64,000 nucleotides of DNA. Source: Phycisphaerae bacterium. GTDB lineage: Bacteria; Planctomycetota; Phycisphaerae; UBA1845; Fen-1342. The notes beneath the pieces were generated by a model. The model was given only the letters and a program-made list of their open reading frames with translations, had not been told where the DNA came from and did not search any database. The DNA is taken from assembly GCA_022072445.1 (NCBI GenBank), contig JAJVHV010000010.1:124001-188000 (forward strand). The letters are read 5' to 3'. Positions within the stretch are counted from its first letter, which is position 1, and each line of letters begins with the position of its first letter. The position numbers were made by a program, and so were the translations under genes. This document shows, piece by piece, positions 8,710 through 44,825 of the stretch.

Positions 8710-9981
8710 TCAGGGCTTCGACGACGGGATGCACGTGCCCGGATCGACACACGCGGCGATCGCGCCGTGGATCGCAGCGTGTAGCTGGGCTTCCGGCTGC
8801 GATGCGGGAGGCGGACCGGCGTAGCGCTGGGCGAGCTCCGAGCGATCGAAGCTCGCTGGCGCGGCGCGGGAGCGGGGTGACGTCGAGAGCTCAAGCGAAT
8901 CCTGCGTCACGGTCGCACCAACCCCGCCCATCCGCTGAAGCACACCCGGCGTAGTCACCGCGCCGTTCAATCTCAGCCGCTCAAGATCGTCGAGCATCGT
9001 GACGATCCGGCCCAGCCGCTCGGGCGTGGCCTCCGCGTCGATCTGAACGCTGACACGGGCCACTTCCTCTGACCTGCCGGCTCGCCACTGCCGCTCGACC
9101 CAGCCCAACCAGCGTGAAACGGGATCTTGCGCCGGCGTGCAACCGGCGGTCTCGACGGCGCGCCCCGTCATGTCGGCGGAGCGGGCCGGCGTTCTCGATG
9201 CGGCCGCGGCCGCGGGCCCAGGGAGCACGCTGCCGGATGAGGCCGGGAAATCGAGCAGTGTCATGTTCTGCCCGCGGATCAAGCGCGCAGCTTCCGGGCT
9301 GACACGTGGCAGCAACGCCAACTGCACCGGCCGGCTCGTTGCAAACTTCAACCCCACCGTCGCCGAAGTCGCCGCGCGGGCGCAGAGCGGCAGCGCTGCA
9401 AACAGTGTCGCGAGCGTGTTGGCGGACGCTGTCGGCAAGTGCGCCACGAAGCGCTCGCCGCCGAGGACGCTCCCCGCCAGCCGCATGAGCGCCGCGATAT
9501 TCTCGGGTGCGGCGGCGCGCCCGCCAGCCACCAGTTCGGGCGGTGCGCCGAGATCAAGCCGCTCGAGCTTTGGCGGCGGCTTGAGCAGCGGCTCGCGGCC
9601 GGCGGCGGCGAGCATGCGCTGCGCGACGAGCGCGGGGTCGCAAGCCAGAGCGCAGTACGCAGCCGGCTCAAGAATGGCGATCAGCGTGTAGACGCGCATC
9701 CCGCCGCGGGCGGTGTGCTCGGCGCCGGCGTGCCGGGAGTGCGCCACGCAGATGCGCCCGCTGCGCAAGCGCCAGACGGCGAGTCCTTCGGCGGATTCGC
9801 CCGGGTCGCACAGGCTGTCGTGCGACGGTGAGCGCTGCGTGATCTCCTGTTTTTCATCCGGCGCGATCCCGCCGCTGGCGGCGACGACGCGGTAGCCCTC
9901 GCCCATGGGTGTCCGGATCGAGGTGAAGATGGCGTGTTCGGCGGTGAGTGTCGTGGTCGGCGCGGTGAGCGTGGCGGTCAC
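8710..9981 (-). CDS. GAP1-like protein (GTPase-associated), last gene of a four-gene operon
   Basis: A 423-residue protein beginning at a GTG (9981) that overlaps the stop of the GTPase gene (GTGA), so the two are translationally coupled. The N-terminus (HAIFTSIRTPMGEGYRVVAA followed by GGIAPDEKQEI) matches the pattern of the GAP1 N-terminal domain, a family defined by its linkage to GTPases in predicted NTP-dependent conflict or signalling systems. A middle alpha-rich region (about 180-290) and a Pro/Ala-rich C-terminal half with no recognised domain follow. No enzyme motif is visible. Its association with a GTPase supports the assignment. The family name comes from memory of comparative genomics and needs a profile search. 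Confidence 0.6.
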   Translation of the reverse strand: MTATLTAPTTTLTAEHAIFTSIRTPMGEGYRVVAASGGIAPDEKQEITQRSPSHDSLCDPGESAEGLAVWRLRSGRICVAHSRHAGAEHTARGGMRVYTLIAILEPAAYCALACDPALVAQRMLAAAGREPLLKPPPKLERLDLGAPPELVAGGRAAAPENIAALMRLAGSVLGGERFVAHLPTASANTLATLFAALPLCARAATSATVGLKFATSRPVQLALLPRVSPEAARLIRGQNMTLLDFPASSGSVLPGPAAAAASRTPARSADMTGRAVETAGCTPAQDPVSRWLGWVERQWRAGRSEEVARVSVQIDAEATPERLGRIVTMLDDLERLRLNGAVTTPGVLQRMGGVGATVTQDSLELSTSPRSRAAPASFDRSELAQRYAGPPPASQPEAQLHAAIHGAIAACVDPGTCIPSSKP

Positions 9982-10904
9982 GATTCCTCCGCGAAGTGAT
10001 CGATGATCCACTGGAACGGTTCGAGCACGCCGCGCAGCGCGGTGTGCAGCGGGACGGGCACGACGGTGTCGTCGATGTTCGAGGTGGCGTAGGCCAGCGA
10101 GCCGATGACGCTGGAGGCGAAGAACTCGTAGCGTTCGAAGCGGCTTTCGCACAGGTTCCAGAGGCGGTTGAGGTTGGCCTTGGCGAACTGGGCCGGGTCG
10201 TCGAAGCACTCCGGGCAGTAGTCGGCCTTGCAGAGCACGATCGCGACCGGCGACTCGATCTTCTCGTCATGCTTGTTGCCGTGCATGGCGTCGATGTAGC
10301 TGAGCGTCTTGACGCTGAAGAAGTCGGGTTGGGGCGAGCCGTTGGCGGCCATGCCCGCGTCGACCAGCATCAGCAACCCCGACGATTTGCTCAGCAGCTT
10401 GCGAATGACGCGAAAGGTCTTCGGCGTGGCCACTTCAGCCGCCAGTGCTTCGCCCGCCATGTCGGGCATGATCAGATCGACCCAGGTCGGGTTCTGGGCG
10501 CGCTGGCAGACCTGGTAATACGCCCACTTCCACTCGTTGGCCTCCATCGGCGTCTTGGGCGGAAACGTGCGGCGGGCCATGTGATTGATGACGGTCTGCT
10601 GGAGATCGACGGAATACGCACCCTTCGGGATGGCCTCGAAGTCGCCGGCGCGATGCGCCAGCATGTCGAGCAGGAAGCCGAGGTAGACGGTTTTGCCGAC
10701 GTTGCTCTCGCCGATGATGCTGACGATCTGCGGCTCGCGCTGCTGGGCGATGACGTCCTGGGCGATGAGCAGCGGTGCCGAGCACTCCTTGCACAACATC
10801 GCGTCGAGCGGATTGTGCGCGTCGCAGATCAGGCACGGGATCGTCGGAATGTCGTCGACGATCAGCTCGGGCTGATTCTTGAGTCCGAACAGATTGCTGA
10901 GCAT
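9978..10904 (-). CDS. Zinc-ribbon GTPase of the DO-GTPase2 type
   Basis: A 308-residue protein. An N-terminal zinc ribbon (Cys24, Cys27, Cys38, Cys41 in CLICDAHNPLDAMLCKEC) is followed by a P-loop GTPase domain: G1/Walker A GESNVGKT at 65-72, a G3-like DMAGE near 150, and a G4-like CKAD in IVLCKADYC. The segment after the P-loop (VYLGFLLDML) is typical of the double-GTPase group that is encoded next to GAP1 proteins. No membrane segment. It lies 80 bp downstream of the FGE-like gene, and its stop overlaps the GAP1-like start. The domain family is a confident GTPase; the exact subfamily is inference. Confidence 0.75.
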   Translation of the reverse strand: MLSNLFGLKNQPELIVDDIPTIPCLICDAHNPLDAMLCKECSAPLLIAQDVIAQQREPQIVSIIGESNVGKTVYLGFLLDMLAHRAGDFEAIPKGAYSVDLQQTVINHMARRTFPPKTPMEANEWKWAYYQVCQRAQNPTWVDLIMPDMAGEALAAEVATPKTFRVIRKLLSKSSGLLMLVDAGMAANGSPQPDFFSVKTLSYIDAMHGNKHDEKIESPVAIVLCKADYCPECFDDPAQFAKANLNRLWNLCESRFERYEFFASSVIGSLAYATSNIDDTVVPVPLHTALRGVLEPFQWIIDHFAEES

Positions 10905-10984
10905 CTCTCACACCCGCTTTCGGCTTGATGTTCAACGCCGCGCACGCCCACCGGCGGCGCCGCGGCACGCCTTGCCTGCTGCGC

Positions 10985-12034
10985 TCAGGGTGACTCACCG
11001 GCGTGCTCAATCCGGTCGAGATCGAGCGCGCAGCGCACGCCGACGTTGTGCACCCGTGCCAGGCCGACCAGCCCGGTGCGAAACGTGCTCGTCGCCTGCG
11101 ACGCGAAATAGGTATCAAACGCGCCGCCGCGGATCGACTTCAGCACCATGTCGCCGATGATCGAGCGGCCGTCGTCGTCGGCGGCGATGAAATCCGAATC
11201 GGTCCACTCCCAGACGTTGCCGATCAGTTGCAGCACGCCGTTGGGAGCGGCGCCGCTGGCATACTCGCCGACGGCGACCGTGCGTCCGATGCCGCTTGAC
11301 CAGATGTTGCAATGCCGCACGTCGAGCGCGTCGCCCCAGGGGTATCGCCGGATGGTCTGAGCCGAGCTGCGGATGCGCCAACTGGCGGCCATCTGCCATT
11401 CGGCTTCGCTGGGCAGCCGGTAACCCGCCCACGCGGCGTACGCCGCCGCTTCGTAGTAGCAGATTCCCACCACCGGGTGATCGGCGAGTCGCCGGTCGTG
11501 CCGGCCGTCGCGCCAGTAGCGCGGCGCCGCGACGCCGGCGAGGTCCTTCATGTCGATCAGGTGCGGCCAGATGTCCTGCGGCCACAGATCGAGGTTCTCA
11601 TAGCCGTCGTCGTCGACGAAGCCCTGATAGTCGGCGTTGGTGACGGGGTGCCGCGCGAGCAGGAAGGCCGCGGTGGCGTGATCGGTTTCCGGGCAGCCCG
11701 GGGTGTCATGCACAGTTTCGGGGATCGATGCAAACCCCTCGGGGACCAGGCCGAAGCGTTCATCGACGGTTTCGAGCACACGTGCGATCGCCGCGGCGCC
11801 GCCGGCCTCCGACTTCCAGCGCGGCACGTCGGCCAGGATGGCGCCCAGGCGACCGAGCTTTTCGCAGCGATCCAGCGGACGATCGGGAAACTTCTGCGGC
11901 GGGGCGGGATCGTAGGCGTCGTCGCGGCGGCGGAGAATGCGCTTCAGCAGCGGACGCCGCGGCTGGGCCGGCCCGCTGGCGGCGTGGGGTGGCGCGGGCT
12001 CGTGCGATTTCTTCGAGAAAAGCTTGATCGACAT
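10985..12034 (-). CDS. FGE-sulfatase-fold protein without the catalytic cysteines
   Basis: A 349-residue protein starting at ATG 12034. After a basic N-terminal region of about 100 residues it has a formylglycine-generating-enzyme fold: HPVTNADYQGF near 135, GYRLPSEAEWQMAA near 215, YPWGDALD, GNVWEWTDS near 280 and a final NVGVRCAL. In active FGE the segment after RGGSF contains two copper-binding Cys; here RGGAFDTYFASQATSTFRTG has none, so formylglycine formation is not expected. FGE-fold proteins without catalysis often act as binding or sensor modules (for example C-type-lectin-like) in signalling and conflict operons. It is second in the operon with the GTPase and GAP1-like genes. Confidence 0.8.
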   Translation of the reverse strand: MSIKLFSKKSHEPAPPHAASGPAQPRRPLLKRILRRRDDAYDPAPPQKFPDRPLDRCEKLGRLGAILADVPRWKSEAGGAAAIARVLETVDERFGLVPEGFASIPETVHDTPGCPETDHATAAFLLARHPVTNADYQGFVDDDGYENLDLWPQDIWPHLIDMKDLAGVAAPRYWRDGRHDRRLADHPVVGICYYEAAAYAAWAGYRLPSEAEWQMAASWRIRSSAQTIRRYPWGDALDVRHCNIWSSGIGRTVAVGEYASGAAPNGVLQLIGNVWEWTDSDFIAADDDGRSIIGDMVLKSIRGGAFDTYFASQATSTFRTGLVGLARVHNVGVRCALDLDRIEHAGESP

Positions 12035-12089
12035 AGTCTGCGTATCCCCGGCGCTGCTCTGACGGTCCGCGAAAAAGCGGCAAGTGGCG

Positions 12090-13010
12090 CTATCCGGCGC
12101 CGATCGCCTTGCGTTTGGCGTCGCGCCGCAGTTTCTGCAAGCGCTCGATGGAGTCGCCGCCGCCGCGCTCGCCGCGCGCCGGCGCGCCCACGCCGGCGCC
12201 GACCAGTTCCGCCTCTTGCTCGACGGAGGCGGGTCGGCGGGTCGTGGCCTTCTGCAGCTCGCGATCGAGCTGCCGCTGCAACGCCGCGAGGCTTTCGCGG
12301 GCCGCGTCGACTTCGCGCATCCGCTGTTGCCACTCGTCCTCGGCCTGCCGCAACCGCTCGCGCTCCTGTTCGAGCTCGGAACGGCTCTCCTCGAGCGAGC
12401 CGGCCAGGCGGGCCAGGTCGTGCTCGCGGTGCTGAATCTCCTGCATCTGCCGCTGCACGGCCTCACGCTGCTGCGCGAGGGCCTGCTGCTCTTCGGCCAG
12501 GCGAGACTGCTCTTTCTTGAGCCGCGTTTCGAGTTCGCCGGCCTCGCTCCGCCGCGCTTCCCACTCGCGGTGCTCGTGCTCCAGCCGCGCCGACGCCTCG
12601 GCGAGCTGCGACTCGTATTCGGTGAGGCTGGCGCGGCGGCGCTCGATCTCGTCGAGCTTGTCCTGCACGTCGGCCATCTCGCGCTCGACGCGCGTCTGGG
12701 CTTCGGCGACGGTCGCTTCGCGCTGATTGATTTCCTGCTCGCGGGCCGCCATCTGCTCGGCGATCAGTTCCTGCGAGTCTTCCAGCTCGACCTGCGTCAT
12801 TTCGACGCTGGCCTGCTGCTGCGAGATTTCGCTCAGTTTGGCGCGCAGCTCGGTGCGGTCGCGCGCCAGGTTTTCGGCCCGCGATTTCAGGACCGTCCGG
12901 AATTTGTGCAGCGTCTGAATCAGGTCGCGACCCATCTCGTCGATGCGGGCCGAATCCAGTTCCTGCTGCGACGGTCGCGCCACCGGCGGGGTGGACGAAT
13001 CCTGACTCAT
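12090..13010 (-). CDS. Long coiled-coil protein, first gene of the GTPase operon
   Basis: A 306-residue protein, start ATG at 13010. About residues 30-250 are an almost uninterrupted coiled coil rich in Gln, Glu, Arg and Ala (RTELRAKLSEISQQQASVEM, QEINQREATVAEAQTRVERE and similar). The C-terminal 50 residues are Gly/Arg-rich (APARGERGGGD) and end in a short basic helix. No signal peptide, membrane segment or enzyme motif is visible. The reading frame stays open upstream to 13622 but that part overlaps the divergent glycosyltransferase and is not coding. It probably provides a scaffold for the GTPase module. Homology is not assignable from sequence alone. Confidence 0.7.
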   Translation of the reverse strand: MSQDSSTPPVARPSQQELDSARIDEMGRDLIQTLHKFRTVLKSRAENLARDRTELRAKLSEISQQQASVEMTQVELEDSQELIAEQMAAREQEINQREATVAEAQTRVEREMADVQDKLDEIERRRASLTEYESQLAEASARLEHEHREWEARRSEAGELETRLKKEQSRLAEEQQALAQQREAVQRQMQEIQHREHDLARLAGSLEESRSELEQERERLRQAEDEWQQRMREVDAARESLAALQRQLDRELQKATTRRPASVEQEAELVGAGVGAPARGERGGGDSIERLQKLRRDAKRKAIGAG

Positions 13011-14490: not shown

Positions 14491-14624
14491 CGGCGCATCC
14501 GGCGGAAGCGGTGCGCGGCTACGATCGTGAAGGCAAGACAGCGCGAGGCGCGCATGTTGCTTATTCGTTTCTTGAGATAGCTTGTGAAATCCCATGAGGC
14601 GTGACGAAACCTGGAGAAACCGGC

Positions 14625-16295
14625 ATGACCGACACAGAATTGCGACAGCTTATCGAAGCCGCGGCGGAGCTCTTACGTCCGCATTTGAAGCGCTCCGAGC
14701 CCCTACGGCGCGCTGTTTCCCTGCTAGGCAAGTGGCTTTGTGAAGAAGTCGATGGGATTTCGATAGGCGCTCCGGGCGTCGAACCAGTCCGTGCAGACGA
14801 CCGACCCATGGCTGAAGTCGGCCCGGCGCTCGATCAAGCCGAGACACGCGCACCGGCGGCGGAAGCGGTCGCCAGGCACGCGCCGGCCCCGCCCGCCAGC
14901 GCCCGAAGCAGGCCGCCGGCGTCAGCGGTTGTCCCGTTGAGGTTGGGCGGCGAGTCGGTGCAATTAGCCGTCCCGGGCACGAGTGAGGAGGCGGAGCGCG
15001 CTCGCCGGGCCGCTGAGCCCCCGCCGTCGTCGAACGGGTGGGCGACGACACTGGCACAGCGGCTGAGCCTCGATCTGGCACTGGTGGAACGGCGCTGCCG
15101 GCTCAAGGCCGACTCGTGCCGGCTGTACGTCGAACGGCTCGCCGCTCCGCCAGGCTCCGAAACGGAACACGAGCTTCGCCGCCGGATGGACGCGATGATC
15201 GCGCAGGCCAAGGCGCTTCCGGCCTGCTTTCTCTGGGTCTTCTGGCGCGAGCGGCCTCAGCCCGACCCCCAGAGCGTGCCCACGATCGCTCAAGCCTACG
15301 AAGTTCACGCCGATGCTGCCGCGGCGATGCGCAAGGTCGATGAAGAGCTGACGCCTGCGGCCGAAGACGTCAGCGAAGCGCTGCGTCTGCTGGCCGAGGC
15401 CAACTCCGCGCTACGGGTCGCGCTCGAAAAGACCTGGTTGGGCAACGACCGCGATCAGGAAGGCGTTCACTATTGGCTGAGGCACGAGACCTCACGCCGC
15501 CACATGTTCATCCAGCGCCACATGACGCTCGACGACCGCGCCGACCCGCAGAACGCGCGCGACTTGCAGGAGCGCATTGGCCGTCTGGTGACCCGCGTCG
15601 AGCAGCGCGCCCAGCGCGACAAAGCCATCAAGACCGCCATCAGCCAGGTCCGCTATCACTCGGGATTGGTCTCCCGACACCGAGCAGAGTCCGCCACCAC
15701 GCACTGGACTCGCACCGCCCAGGCGATCGAAACGCTGCGCGAGCTCGGCATTCCGGCGTCGGATCGCCGGATCATCGACGCGCTCGACCGCGACGCCGTC
15801 CGCGCGTGGTCTGCCGAACTGGCCAACTCGATCGACCTGACGACGGCCATCGAGGCGCGCCGGGCGCTCGACGAGCGCCCCGCGGACGACGAACTCGATG
15901 AGCCAGACGGCTCGCCGGCGCGCTGGAGCCCGGCGGTCGAGGAAGTCCGCGATCTCCTTCGCGGACGGCACCTGGTGCTCATCGGAGGACAGCGAAACGA
16001 CCAGGCCGTCGCCCGCATGGTCGGCGCGTTTGAGCTCGGCGACGTCGAGTGGGTGGAGCTCGTCGAGCACGGCAGTGGCGAGCCGATGCGCGCCCCGATC
16101 TGGCGGGCTGAGACCGCCGTCGTCGTCGTGATCGTCAAGCTGACCGGTCACCAGCACGCCGACGAAGCGCGTGCCGCGGCGGAAGCCGCGGGCAAGCCGT
16201 GCGTGTACCTGTCGGGCGGTTATAACCCCGAGCGCGTCGCGCGGGCGATCCTCGATCAGGCCAGTCAGCGGCTCGCCGTCGTCGAGGGCCATTGA
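14625..16295 (+). CDS. Coiled protein with C-terminal DUF2325-like domain
   Basis: A 556-residue protein of unknown function. The ATG at 14625 is preferred over a GTG at 14601 because GGAG lies eight bases upstream. Residues 1-30 form a helix (TELRQLIEAAAELLRPHL); a low-complexity Ala/Pro/Arg region follows (about 55-130), then a long helical region (about 140-430). The last 110 residues resemble DUF2325: VLIGGQRND, VEWVELVEHG, AVVVVIVKLTGHQHADEARA and GKPCVYLSGG, the pattern of a Rossmann-like fold with a conserved His after a hydrophobic strand. DUF2325 proteins are uncharacterised. No partner is obvious; it lies between a glycosyltransferase and a HEAT-repeat lipoprotein. Confidence 0.65.
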   Translation: MTDTELRQLIEAAAELLRPHLKRSEPLRRAVSLLGKWLCEEVDGISIGAPGVEPVRADDRPMAEVGPALDQAETRAPAAEAVARHAPAPPASARSRPPASAVVPLRLGGESVQLAVPGTSEEAERARRAAEPPPSSNGWATTLAQRLSLDLALVERRCRLKADSCRLYVERLAAPPGSETEHELRRRMDAMIAQAKALPACFLWVFWRERPQPDPQSVPTIAQAYEVHADAAAAMRKVDEELTPAAEDVSEALRLLAEANSALRVALEKTWLGNDRDQEGVHYWLRHETSRRHMFIQRHMTLDDRADPQNARDLQERIGRLVTRVEQRAQRDKAIKTAISQVRYHSGLVSRHRAESATTHWTRTAQAIETLRELGIPASDRRIIDALDRDAVRAWSAELANSIDLTTAIEARRALDERPADDELDEPDGSPARWSPAVEEVRDLLRGRHLVLIGGQRNDQAVARMVGAFELGDVEWVELVEHGSGEPMRAPIWRAETAVVVVIVKLTGHQHADEARAAAEAAGKPCVYLSGGYNPERVARAILDQASQRLAVVEGH

Positions 16296-23799: not shown

Positions 23800-24162
23800 G
23801 GCGTGGCGGGGCGCTGGGCGTGCGGCCGGTTTGTGGCGGGTTCGATAACGGTGGGCGATGGCGTTCAGGTTTCTCATGCTGATAGTGTAGCACAGATTTC
23901 TAGAAATGCAAGGTGCGACGCGAGCGGATGAAAAAACGTCTGCGGGTGTTATCGGGCGCGAGCTTGCGCGAAGGGGCGCCGCCAACCGAGCCCCGACCGT
24001 CAGGGAGGGGCCCGGGGCGGACACAGGTGTTCATGTCTCGGTGTATTGGCGGCGTTCGCGCGGGCGCGATGCGCCGAGTCCGTAGGCACGTTCTGGTCGC
24101 ACCGGCATTCGCCCTCCGAACGCCTCCATTCAGGCTCGCTTCTCGCTCGCGTGCTGGCAGAG
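23800..24162. other. Non-coding stretch with an inverted copy of repeat family C
   Basis: No gene recognised. At about 23991-24013 GAGCCCCGACC...GGGAGGGG is the inverse complement of the core found seven times in the following array. The stretch also has a short palindrome TTTCTAGAAA near 23897. Confidence 0.55.
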
Positions 24163-24638
24163 TTTGTGCGCTCGACGGTGGCGTTCGCCGTACGAACCCC
24201 TCCCTCACGGTCGGGGCTCGGCTGGCAGGGTTTGTGCGCTCGACGGTGGCGTTCGCCGTTCGAACCCCTCCCTCACGGTCGGGGCTCGGCTGGCAGGGTT
24301 TGTGCGCTCGACGGTGGCGTTCGCCGTACGAACCCCTCCCTCACGGTCGGGGCTCGGCTGGCATGGTTTGTGCGCTCGACGGTGGCGTTCGCCGTACGAA
24401 CCCCTCCCTCACGGTCGGGGCTCGGCTGGCAGAGTTTGTGCGCTCGACGGTGGCGTTCGCCGTTCGAACCCCTCCCTCACGGTCGGGGCTCGGCTGGCAG
24501 AGTTTGTGCGCTCGACGGTGGCGTTCGCCGTTCGAACCCCTCCCTCACGGTCGGGGCTCGGCTGGCAGGGTTTGTGCGCTCGACGGTGGCGTTCGCCGTA
24601 CGAACCCCTCCCTCACGGTCGGGGCTCGGCTGGGGACG
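24163..24638 (+). repeat. Seven tandem copies of a 68-bp repeat
   Basis: The word TTTGTGCGCTCGACGGTGGC recurs at 24163, 24231, 24299, 24367, 24435, 24503 and 24571, exactly 68 bp apart. Each unit also has CCCCTCCCTCACGGTCGGGG, the family C core. The copies differ at few positions (for example TACG/TTCG, AGAG/AGGG/ATGG). There are no spacers, so it is not CRISPR. Because 68 is not a multiple of three, all plus frames stay open by chance; none is a gene. Confidence 0.9.
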
Positions 24639-32701: not shown

Positions 32702-32975
32702 GGCAATGCAGAATGCAGAATGAAGAATGCAGAAGCAATGCAGAAGCAATGCAGAATGCAGAATGAAGAATGCAGAAGCAATGCAGAATGGGGCGTGAAG
32801 AATGCAGAAGGCCGGCGCTGGGACCTGGCGCTTCGCACCGTGACATCCGAGCACGAAGCGCCAGCGAGTGACAGCGAGTGAGCGGGAGTGCAGCCGAGGG
32901 CGGCTGCTCTCCATAGACTCAAGGCAGCCGAGGGCGGAGTGCAGCCGGGGCGGCTGCCTTACATGATCGTTCCTG
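32702..32975. repeat. Repeat families A and D in the GH172/mgtE gap
   Basis: From 32702 to about 32808 AATGCAGAATGCAGAATGAAG words recur many times (family A). From about 32890 to 32962 three units of the AGCCGAGGGCGGCT type (family D) follow. No gene is seen in the 275 bp. The sequence sits between convergent genes. Confidence 0.75.
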
Positions 32976-44584: not shown

Positions 44585-44825
44585 TCCCTTACGGTCGCGG
44601 CTCGGACAGGCACGGTCGCGGCTCGGGCAGACGCGGTCGCGGCTCGGACAGGCACGGTCGCGGCTCGGGCAGACGCGGTCGCGGCTCGGACAGGCACGGT
44701 CGCGGCTCGGGCAGACGCGGTCGCGGCTCGGACAGGCACGGTCGCGGCTCGGACAGGCACGGTCGCGGCGCGATCGCGCTGCCGCGGCTCGGACAGGCGC
44801 GGGCGCGGCTCGGACAGGTGGGCGA
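44585..44825 (+). repeat. 21-bp tandem repeat array, about ten copies (family C core)
   Basis: CGGTCGCGGCTCGG recurs at 44592, 44613, 44634, 44655, 44676, 44697, 44718, 44739 and 44760, 21 bp apart, with alternating ends GACAGGCA and GCAGACG, then degenerates to about 44825. Its core is related to that of the 68-bp repeat at 24163-24638 (CACGGTCGGGGCTCGG). No gene occupies this gap between divergently arranged ends; the open frames across it are due to the multiple-of-three unit. Confidence 0.85.

What the first reader, a model, noticed from the sequence alone, without database searches (positions are those of the whole stretch)
8710..13010. Four-gene operon: coiled-coil, catalytically dead FGE-fold, zinc-ribbon GTPase, GAP1-like protein
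The genes run in one direction with gaps of 55 and 80 bp and a GTGA overlap between the last two. The GTPase (zinc ribbon, GESNVGKT, DMAGE, CKAD) and the GAP1-like partner resemble members of predicted NTP-dependent conflict or signalling systems. Adding a 300-residue coiled coil and an FGE-like protein without its catalytic cysteines is a combination I do not know. A scaffold, a ligand-binding module, a GTP switch and an associated regulator make a plausible sensor system. Function is inference; the domains are seen.
Basis: partly seen in the sequence, partly recalled or inferred. Interest (0 to 1): 0.8.

Follow-up and report, generated by a model that had tools for sequence, protein, structure and literature searches.

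The report
Bacterial GTPase switch with DENN-like regulator
A fixed set of four neighbouring genes, plus a usual fifth partner, encodes a bacterial GTP-driven switch on a coiled-coil scaffold; the protein that probably turns the switch off is predicted to look like the DENN/longin regulators that control membrane traffic in animal and yeast cells.

Summary
Pfam confirms FGE fold, DO-GTPase and GAP1-N2. The set is a GAP1-N2-type GTPase system of Kaur et al. 2020, who already noted FGE ("FGS") partners in planctomycetes, so the core combination is not wholly new. New here: (1) the order coiled coil-FGE-GTPase-GAP1 is kept in every locus whose contig allows a test, including eight in other planctomycete classes. 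(2) The FGE lacks both catalytic cysteines in all 38 aligned members yet keeps 39 invariant residues. (3) A fifth protein (coiled coil or linker, sometimes FHA, with a conserved tail) adjoins the set in 32 of 34 testable same-class loci; in the window's genome it is unlinked. (4) The GAP1 model has longin topology; its best structural matches are all longin/DENN GTPase regulators or TagF, and an arginine conserved throughout GAP1-N2 sits in the beta4-beta5 loop, where DENN-type GAPs carry their arginine finger. I read it as a constant, membrane-proximal GTP switch acting on a coiled-coil scaffold, rather than a variable conflict system. Biochemistry is untested; the DENN link rests on one AlphaFold model with moderate scores.

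The parts
12090..13010 (-). Coiled-coil protein, 306 aa; predicted scaffold
   Evidence: ORF; homologue directly upstream of the FGE gene in 41 of 41 loci with enough contig
12093..12146 (-). C-terminal basic motif ERLQKLRRDAKRKAIGAG of the coiled-coil protein, its best conserved part
   Evidence: Same motif or a close variant at the C-terminus in all 41 upstream coiled-coil ORFs, other classes included
10985..12034 (-). FGE (sulfatase-modifying factor) fold protein, 349 aa, without catalytic cysteines
   Evidence: Pfam PF03781 6.6e-37; 39 invariant columns in 38 homologues
11105..11116 (-). Invariant/near-invariant DTYF (residues 307-310) where the active enzyme has DSYC; the first catalytic Cys falls in a gap
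   Evidence: Alignment A3 and HMMER alignment to solved FGE 6muj
9978..10904 (-). DO-GTPase, 308 aa, one N-terminal zinc ribbon, Ras-like GTPase fold
   Evidence: Pfam; 44 invariant columns; AlphaFold2 model pLDDT 88, best matches Rap/Ral/Ras/Rab/Arl, Z 14-15
10782..10835 (-). Zinc-ribbon cysteines C24, C27, C38, C41
   Evidence: Invariant in all 30 aligned homologues
10689..10712 (-). P-loop GESNVGKT (residues 65-72)
   Evidence: G65, G70, K71, T72 invariant
10449..10463 (-). Walker B/G3 motif DMAGE (residues 148-152) with the invariant Glu that defines DO-GTPases
   Evidence: D148, A150, G151, E152 invariant; definition in PMC7159879
8710..9981 (-). GAP1 protein, 423 aa: N-terminal longin-topology domain (about residues 9-151), then an alpha/beta and a helical part; predicted GTPase regulator
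   Evidence: Pfam GAP1-N2 (32 of 32 homologues); AlphaFold2 model and structure comparison
9706..9708 (-). Arg92 of GAP1, candidate arginine finger, in the loop between strands beta4 and beta5
   Evidence: Invariant in alignment A2 and present in every GAP1-N2 domain checked; loop position from DSSP of the model

Best explanation
The operon encodes a constant GTP-switch complex acting close to the membrane. The zinc-ribbon GTPase, of Ras-like fold, binds GTP. GAP1, a protein with a longin domain and probably a DENN-like remainder, docks on it and ends the signal by inserting Arg92 as an arginine finger. The cysteine-less FGE domain is a binding module with a conserved pocket, soluble here and membrane-anchored in other classes. 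The coiled-coil protein and its usual fifth partner form the scaffold on which the switch acts: the GTP state would set assembly of the scaffold or recruitment through its conserved C-terminal tails. Shown: gene order, conservation, missing cysteines, motifs, predicted folds, co-inheritance. Inferred: physical complex, GAP activity, scaffold function, membrane proximity in this organism.
For: Order kept in every testable locus. FGE, GTPase and GAP1 pairwise identities co-vary (Mantel r 0.94 for FGE-GTPase and about 0.8 with GAP1, more than with the unlinked-in-relatives glyA). GTPase and FGE average 61% and 53% identity within the class against 70% for GlyA; GAP1 and the coiled coil about 30%. 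GAP1 model: strand-strand-helix-three strands-helix topology of a longin domain. VIA-align ranks 1-22 are all longin/DENN proteins or TagF (Loki longin Z 8.2, NPRL2/3 about 8, DENND1A 7.9, DENND10 7.5, Lst4, FLCN, C9orf72); unrelated PAS/LOV rows start at 4.7; Foldseek's top three are FLCN-FNIP complex chains. Arg92 lies between beta4 (77-87) and beta5 (95-104), the place reported for the arginine finger of DENN GAPs (PMC12803157), and is conserved in all 43 set members and 24 other GAP1-N2 domains checked. FGE has an N-terminal hydrophobic helix in seven of eight other-class loci. Fifth partner adjacent in 32 of 34 loci.
Against: The longin/DENN match comes from one AlphaFold2 model built on 32 sequences. 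The best Foldseek E-value is only 1.8e-3, and Z about 8 is near what unrelated models reach; the case rests on the consistency of the hits and on the arginine. No Pfam longin or DENN match at sequence level. Most characterised DENN proteins are GEFs. No biochemical or localisation data. The fifth partner is unlinked in the window's genome and was not found in the other classes.
Confidence: 0.5

Rival explanations
1. It is a biological-conflict (immunity) system as proposed for GAP1-N2 systems in general: the GTPase-GAP1 pair is a threshold switch and the cysteine-less FGE is an effector or decoy that binds an invader.
For: DO-GTPase, GAP1-N2 and FGE are components named in Kaur et al. 2020, who report FGS effectors in planctomycete GAP1-N2 systems. 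Distribution is patchy: 21 of 34 sampled genomes of the order.
Against: No component is swapped between loci; the FGE is strongly conserved rather than diversified; one DO-GTPase and one GAP1-N2 in the genome; none on plasmids, phages or viral contigs; no PADLOC match for the FGE, GTPase or GAP1 proteins and no obvious defence neighbourhood; the other GAP1-N2 loci of the phylum have no FGE nearby in 19 of 20 cases.
Confidence: 0.2
2. GAP1 is a guanine-nucleotide exchange factor for the GTPase, as most DENN proteins are, so it switches the system on.
For: DENND1A/1B Rab GEFs match the model over 239-290 residues, Z 7.4-7.9.
Against: The conserved arginine sits in the beta4-beta5 loop that marks DENN GAPs, not GEFs.
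Confidence: 0.15
3. A T6SS-like phospho-signalling relay: GAP1 acts like TagF by binding an FHA protein, and the GTPase is secondary.
For: TagF is among the structural matches (Z 6.8 over 244 residues). TagF represses T6SS by binding Fha (PMC5995506). The fifth partner has two FHA domains in L006 and in the window's genome.
Against: FHA was found in only two of the few fifth-partner proteins scanned; no T6SS link was looked for; the gene next to GAP1 is the GTPase in every locus.
Confidence: 0.1

Closest known systems
GAP1-N2-type DO-GTPase (GTPase-centric) systems, Kaur et al. 2020 eLife (PMC7159879)
   Same: DO-GTPase with zinc ribbon and Walker-B Glu, GAP1-N2 directly downstream, FGE-domain partner in planctomycetes
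   Different: No FNIII partner or second GTPase found next to it; one zinc ribbon; short GAP1; partners constant rather than variable; coiled coil and fifth protein not described there; that paper does not mention longin or DENN
Eukaryotic DENN/longin GTPase regulators (Avl9 and DENND6 DENN GAPs; FLCN-FNIP, C9orf72-SMCR8, GATOR1)
   Same: Predicted longin topology; conserved Arg in the beta4-beta5 loop; partner is a Ras-like-fold GTPase
   Different: Bacterial; no detectable sequence similarity; partner GTPase is a zinc-ribbon DO-GTPase; only partial match beyond the longin domain; activity untested
MglA-MglB (bacterial Ras-like GTPase and roadblock-domain GAP)
   Same: Bacterial GTPase-GAP pair; MglA is among the GTPase fold matches
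   Different: The partner matches longin/DENN proteins; extra FGE and coiled-coil partners
TagF-Fha of type VI secretion
   Same: TagF resembles the GAP1 model; an FHA protein is part of the wider set in two genomes
   Different: No secretion genes seen in the set; GTPase always present
SUMF2 and GldK/PorK (FGE-fold proteins)
   Same: FGE fold; for SUMF2 and GldK/PorK a non-enzymatic role is known from the field (my knowledge)
   Different: Linked to a GTPase and its regulator; predicted cytoplasmic

Membership tests
GAP1-N2-type DO-GTPase system | DO-GTPase domain | tested here: met
   DO-GTPase1 46 bits and DO-GTPase2 39 bits, both above the cut-off of 27
GAP1-N2-type DO-GTPase system | Conserved Glu in the Walker B motif | tested here: met
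   DMAGE, E152 invariant in 30 sequences
GAP1-N2-type DO-GTPase system | GAP1 with an N2-type N-terminal domain, encoded downstream of the GTPase | tested here: met
   PF20013 33.9 bits, cut-off 24; 32 of 32 homologues match; 4-bp overlap with the GTPase gene
GAP1-N2-type DO-GTPase system | GAP1-M and GAP1-C domains | tested here: inconclusive
   GAP1-M matched in 1 of 32 members only; a helical region follows the alpha/beta part in the model
GAP1-N2-type DO-GTPase system | FNIII-repeat partner | tested here: inconclusive
   Pfam scan of the four proteins and four neighbouring genes shows none; neighbours in relatives were not scanned for FNIII
GAP1-N2-type DO-GTPase system | Variable effector component | tested here: not met
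   FGE and coiled coil are the same in every locus with enough contig
Formylglycine-generating enzyme | FGE fold | tested here: met
   PF03781 6.6e-37; matches solved FGE structures
Formylglycine-generating enzyme | Two catalytic cysteines | tested here: not met
   Aligned to solved FGE 6muj, DSYC becomes DTYF and the first Cys falls in a gap; absent in all 38
EgtB/OvoA sulfoxide synthases | N-terminal iron-binding DinB domain | tested here: not met
   No DinB-type Pfam match; only about 85-100 residues precede the FGE domain; NCBIfam EgtB match is partial and far below cut-off
DENN/longin GTPase regulator | Longin topology at the N-terminus | tested here: met
   DSSP of the model and matches to longin structures, Z up to 8.2; a predicted model only
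DENN/longin GTPase regulator | Central DENN and d-DENN domains | tested here: inconclusive
   DENND1A/1B/10 align over 239-290 residues at rmsd 5.3-8.7
DENN/longin GTPase regulator | Arginine finger between beta4 and beta5 (DENN-GAP criterion) | tested here: met
   Arg92, conserved in all GAP1-N2 domains checked; criterion from PMC12803157; position only, not activity
DENN/longin GTPase regulator | GAP or GEF activity on the cognate GTPase | not testable with these tools
   Needs purified proteins
MglA-MglB | Roadblock-fold GAP partner | tested here: inconclusive
   Structure matches are longin/DENN; stand-alone roadblock proteins are not among the rows shown
Known anti-phage defence system | Match to a defence protein model | tested here: not met
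   No PADLOC match for FGE, GTPase or GAP1; the coiled coil has only coiled-coil composition matches

The most novel reading that the evidence does not exclude
GAP1-N2 proteins, known so far only as proteins of unknown fold associated with DO-GTPases, are prokaryotic longin-DENN-type GTPase-activating proteins with an arginine finger. The module long described as a eukaryotic invention would then exist, with a cognate Ras-like-fold GTPase and coiled-coil scaffold, in bacteria, and here forms a constant cell-organising switch in planctomycetes.
Probability: 0.42. Interest if true: 0.9.

Novelty: new variant of a known kind. Interest (0 to 1): 0.72.

Why it matters
It gives an uncharacterised bacterial GTPase family a concrete, testable biochemistry: which protein is the GAP, and which residue. 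If the longin-DENN link holds, it bears on where the DENN regulators of membrane traffic came from, a question so far answered only through MglB-type roadblock proteins. It also separates one GAP1-N2 branch that looks like a constant cell-biology module from a family so far interpreted as conflict systems, in a phylum known for unusual membranes and division.

Tried and rejected
NCBIfam gave nothing useful for the GTPase or GAP1. The apparent SMC/Rad50/JetC/ZorA matches of the coiled coil are coiled-coil composition, not membership. Sequence profiles against solved structures found no relative of GAP1 and only zinc-finger or marginal matches for the GTPase. The fifth gene has no Pfam family; a first whole-length profile missed its copy in the window's genome, and a tail-only profile found it (E 3.4e-4). 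Flanking genes of the window (radical SAM, glycosyltransferase, DUF2325-like, HEAT) are not conserved next to the set in relatives and were left out. One GlyA match (G492) held stop codons and some were fragmentary, so those genomes were left out of the identity comparison. Roadblock proteins did not appear in the structure rows, which does not exclude them.
Full report
What is there. Pfam assigns FGE-sulfatase (6.6e-37), DO-GTPase1/2 (5.4e-12 and 9.2e-10) and GAP1-N2 (3.8e-8), each above its curated cut-off. The genome holds only one GAP1-N2 and one DO-GTPase2 match, both here. The nearest named relatives of the GTPase are MAGs labelled Planctomycetota or Phycisphaerae.

Conservation of the set. 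The GTPase has strong relatives in 18 of 41 sampled near genomes, 21 of 34 sampled genomes of the order, few others in the class, and 8 genomes of other classes of the phylum at 36-40% identity. I fetched the surroundings of these loci. FGE, GTPase and GAP1 follow one another in the same order and strand wherever the contig is long enough. Directly upstream of the FGE gene, 41 of 41 loci with enough contig have a coiled-coil ORF, 18-150 bp away; in the other two the contig ends there. The coiled coils share little sequence, but all end in one basic motif of the type FQKLCRDAKRKAIG, which in the other classes reads FAKLQRDVNKRRG. The flanking genes of the window are not conserved near the set. 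Gene calls in relatives come from a simple script of mine and are approximate at the starts.

Rates and co-inheritance. Mean pairwise identity within the class is 61% for the GTPase, 53% for FGE, 29% for GAP1 and 30% for the coiled coil, against 70% for GlyA, a housekeeping enzyme encoded in the window. Pairwise identities of FGE and GTPase correlate at r=0.94 over all genomes, and each with GAP1 at about 0.8; within the class the correlation with GlyA is only 0.43-0.48. The three genes therefore travel together. This constancy is unlike the variable effectors that define conflict systems. The GTPase has no relative in 72,556 plasmids, 50,697 phages or the viral contigs.

FGE. Across 38 homologues 39 columns are invariant. 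Aligned to the solved FGE 6muj, the segment DSYC becomes DTYF and the first catalytic cysteine falls in a gap. All 38 lack both cysteines, so the formylglycine chemistry is excluded while a conserved pocket remains. In seven of eight other-class loci the protein begins with a hydrophobic helix, which suggests a membrane anchor there; in the window there is only a short basic N-terminus. The class-wide N-terminal consensus MAL-LF-RK may be a substitute, but this is a guess.

GTPase. Invariant are the four zinc-ribbon cysteines, the P-loop, D148/A150/G151/E152 and K226/D228. The AlphaFold2 model (pLDDT 88) has a Ras-like fold, with Rap, Ral, Ras, Rab and Arl structures at Z 14-15.

GAP1. The AlphaFold2 model (pLDDT 78) shows strands 12-24 and 27-35, helix 41-50, strands 65-71, 77-87 and 95-104, then helices: the order of a longin domain. 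An alpha/beta part with five short strands and a helical part follow. Foldseek gives only weak scores, but its first three rows are chains of FLCN-FNIP complexes. The second aligner ranks 22 longin/DENN proteins or TagF first (Z 8.2 to 4.9): a Lokiarchaeal longin, NPRL2/3 of GATOR1, the Rab GEFs DENND1A and 1B over 239-290 residues, DENND10, Lst4, FLCN, C9orf72, a COP subunit bound to Arf1, and TagF. PAS/LOV proteins follow from Z 4.7. A top Z near 8 can be chance, so the weight lies on the agreement of the rows and on one further fact. A 2026 preprint on Avl9 defines DENN GAPs by an arginine finger between beta4 and beta5 of the longin subdomain (PMC12803157); for SMCR8 the longin arginine finger has been seen in a structure (PMC8213707). 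In GAP1 the loop between beta4 and beta5 reads EHTARGG. Its Arg92 is invariant in alignment A2, and the pattern acidic-x-Ser/Thr-x-Arg is found in all 43 set members and in 24 other GAP1-N2 domains of the phylum (three sequences needed reading by eye). Kaur et al. do not mention longin or DENN, and Zhang et al. 2012 treat the DENN module as eukaryotic, with longin derived from MglB-like domains (PMC3521125).

A fifth partner. In 32 of 34 same-class loci where it could be seen, the next gene upstream of the coiled coil encodes a protein with a conserved tail, LDxETxxxxRxxRRL...KSxxELL...K-W-W-R. It is either a linker protein on the same strand (open frames of roughly 160-570 aa, mostly 170-330) or a large coiled-coil protein (open frames of about 860-1670 aa) on the opposite strand. 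It has no Pfam family of its own. In the window's genome it is not next to the set: the best match is a 743-aa protein on another contig (L173:8486-10717) with two FHA domains, a long coiled coil and the same tail; L006 has the same FHA arrangement next to its set. It was not found in the other-class loci.

Mechanism. The evidence fits a GTP switch (GTPase) with its own regulator (GAP1, probably a GAP through Arg92), a binding module (FGE) and a coiled-coil scaffold whose conserved tails are likely docking or membrane-contact sites. That the parts form one complex, that GAP1 is a GAP, and that the scaffold is the output are inferences.

Place among known systems. By domain content this is a GAP1-N2-type DO-GTPase system, and Kaur et al. 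already saw FGS-domain partners in planctomycetes. It differs in having constant partners, a coiled coil and fifth protein not described there, and no FNIII partner seen in the window. Of 20 other GAP1-N2 loci of the phylum, only one has a BLAST-detectable FGE nearby, so this is a distinct branch. I rate it a new variant of a known kind; the longin-DENN reading, if right, would reach the whole family.

Noticed in passing
24153-24633 (also 23988, 44586, 46767): A 68-bp unit repeated 7 times (97% matches) carries the core CCCTCACGGTCGGGGCTC. The core occurs 116 times in the genome (control 0), often as clusters and opposed pairs: a dispersed repeat family.
   Followed up: partly
L173:8486-10717 (own genome, contig C32): FHA-FHA-coiled-coil protein with the WW tail, the unlinked fifth partner of the window's genome.
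   Followed up: yes
14601-16295: 564-aa protein with only a weak, below-cut-off DUF2325 match at its C-terminus and otherwise no Pfam family.
   Followed up: no
32703-32817: Array of AATGCAGAA-type short repeats.
   Followed up: no
44591-44818: 21/42-bp tandem array, 11 copies of ACGGTCGCGGCTCGGACAGGC, related to the dispersed repeat core.
   Followed up: partly
L184:4991-5752: The one other GAP1-N2 locus of the phylum with an FGE-like neighbour (22% identity); possibly the FGS type described by Kaur et al..
   Followed up: no
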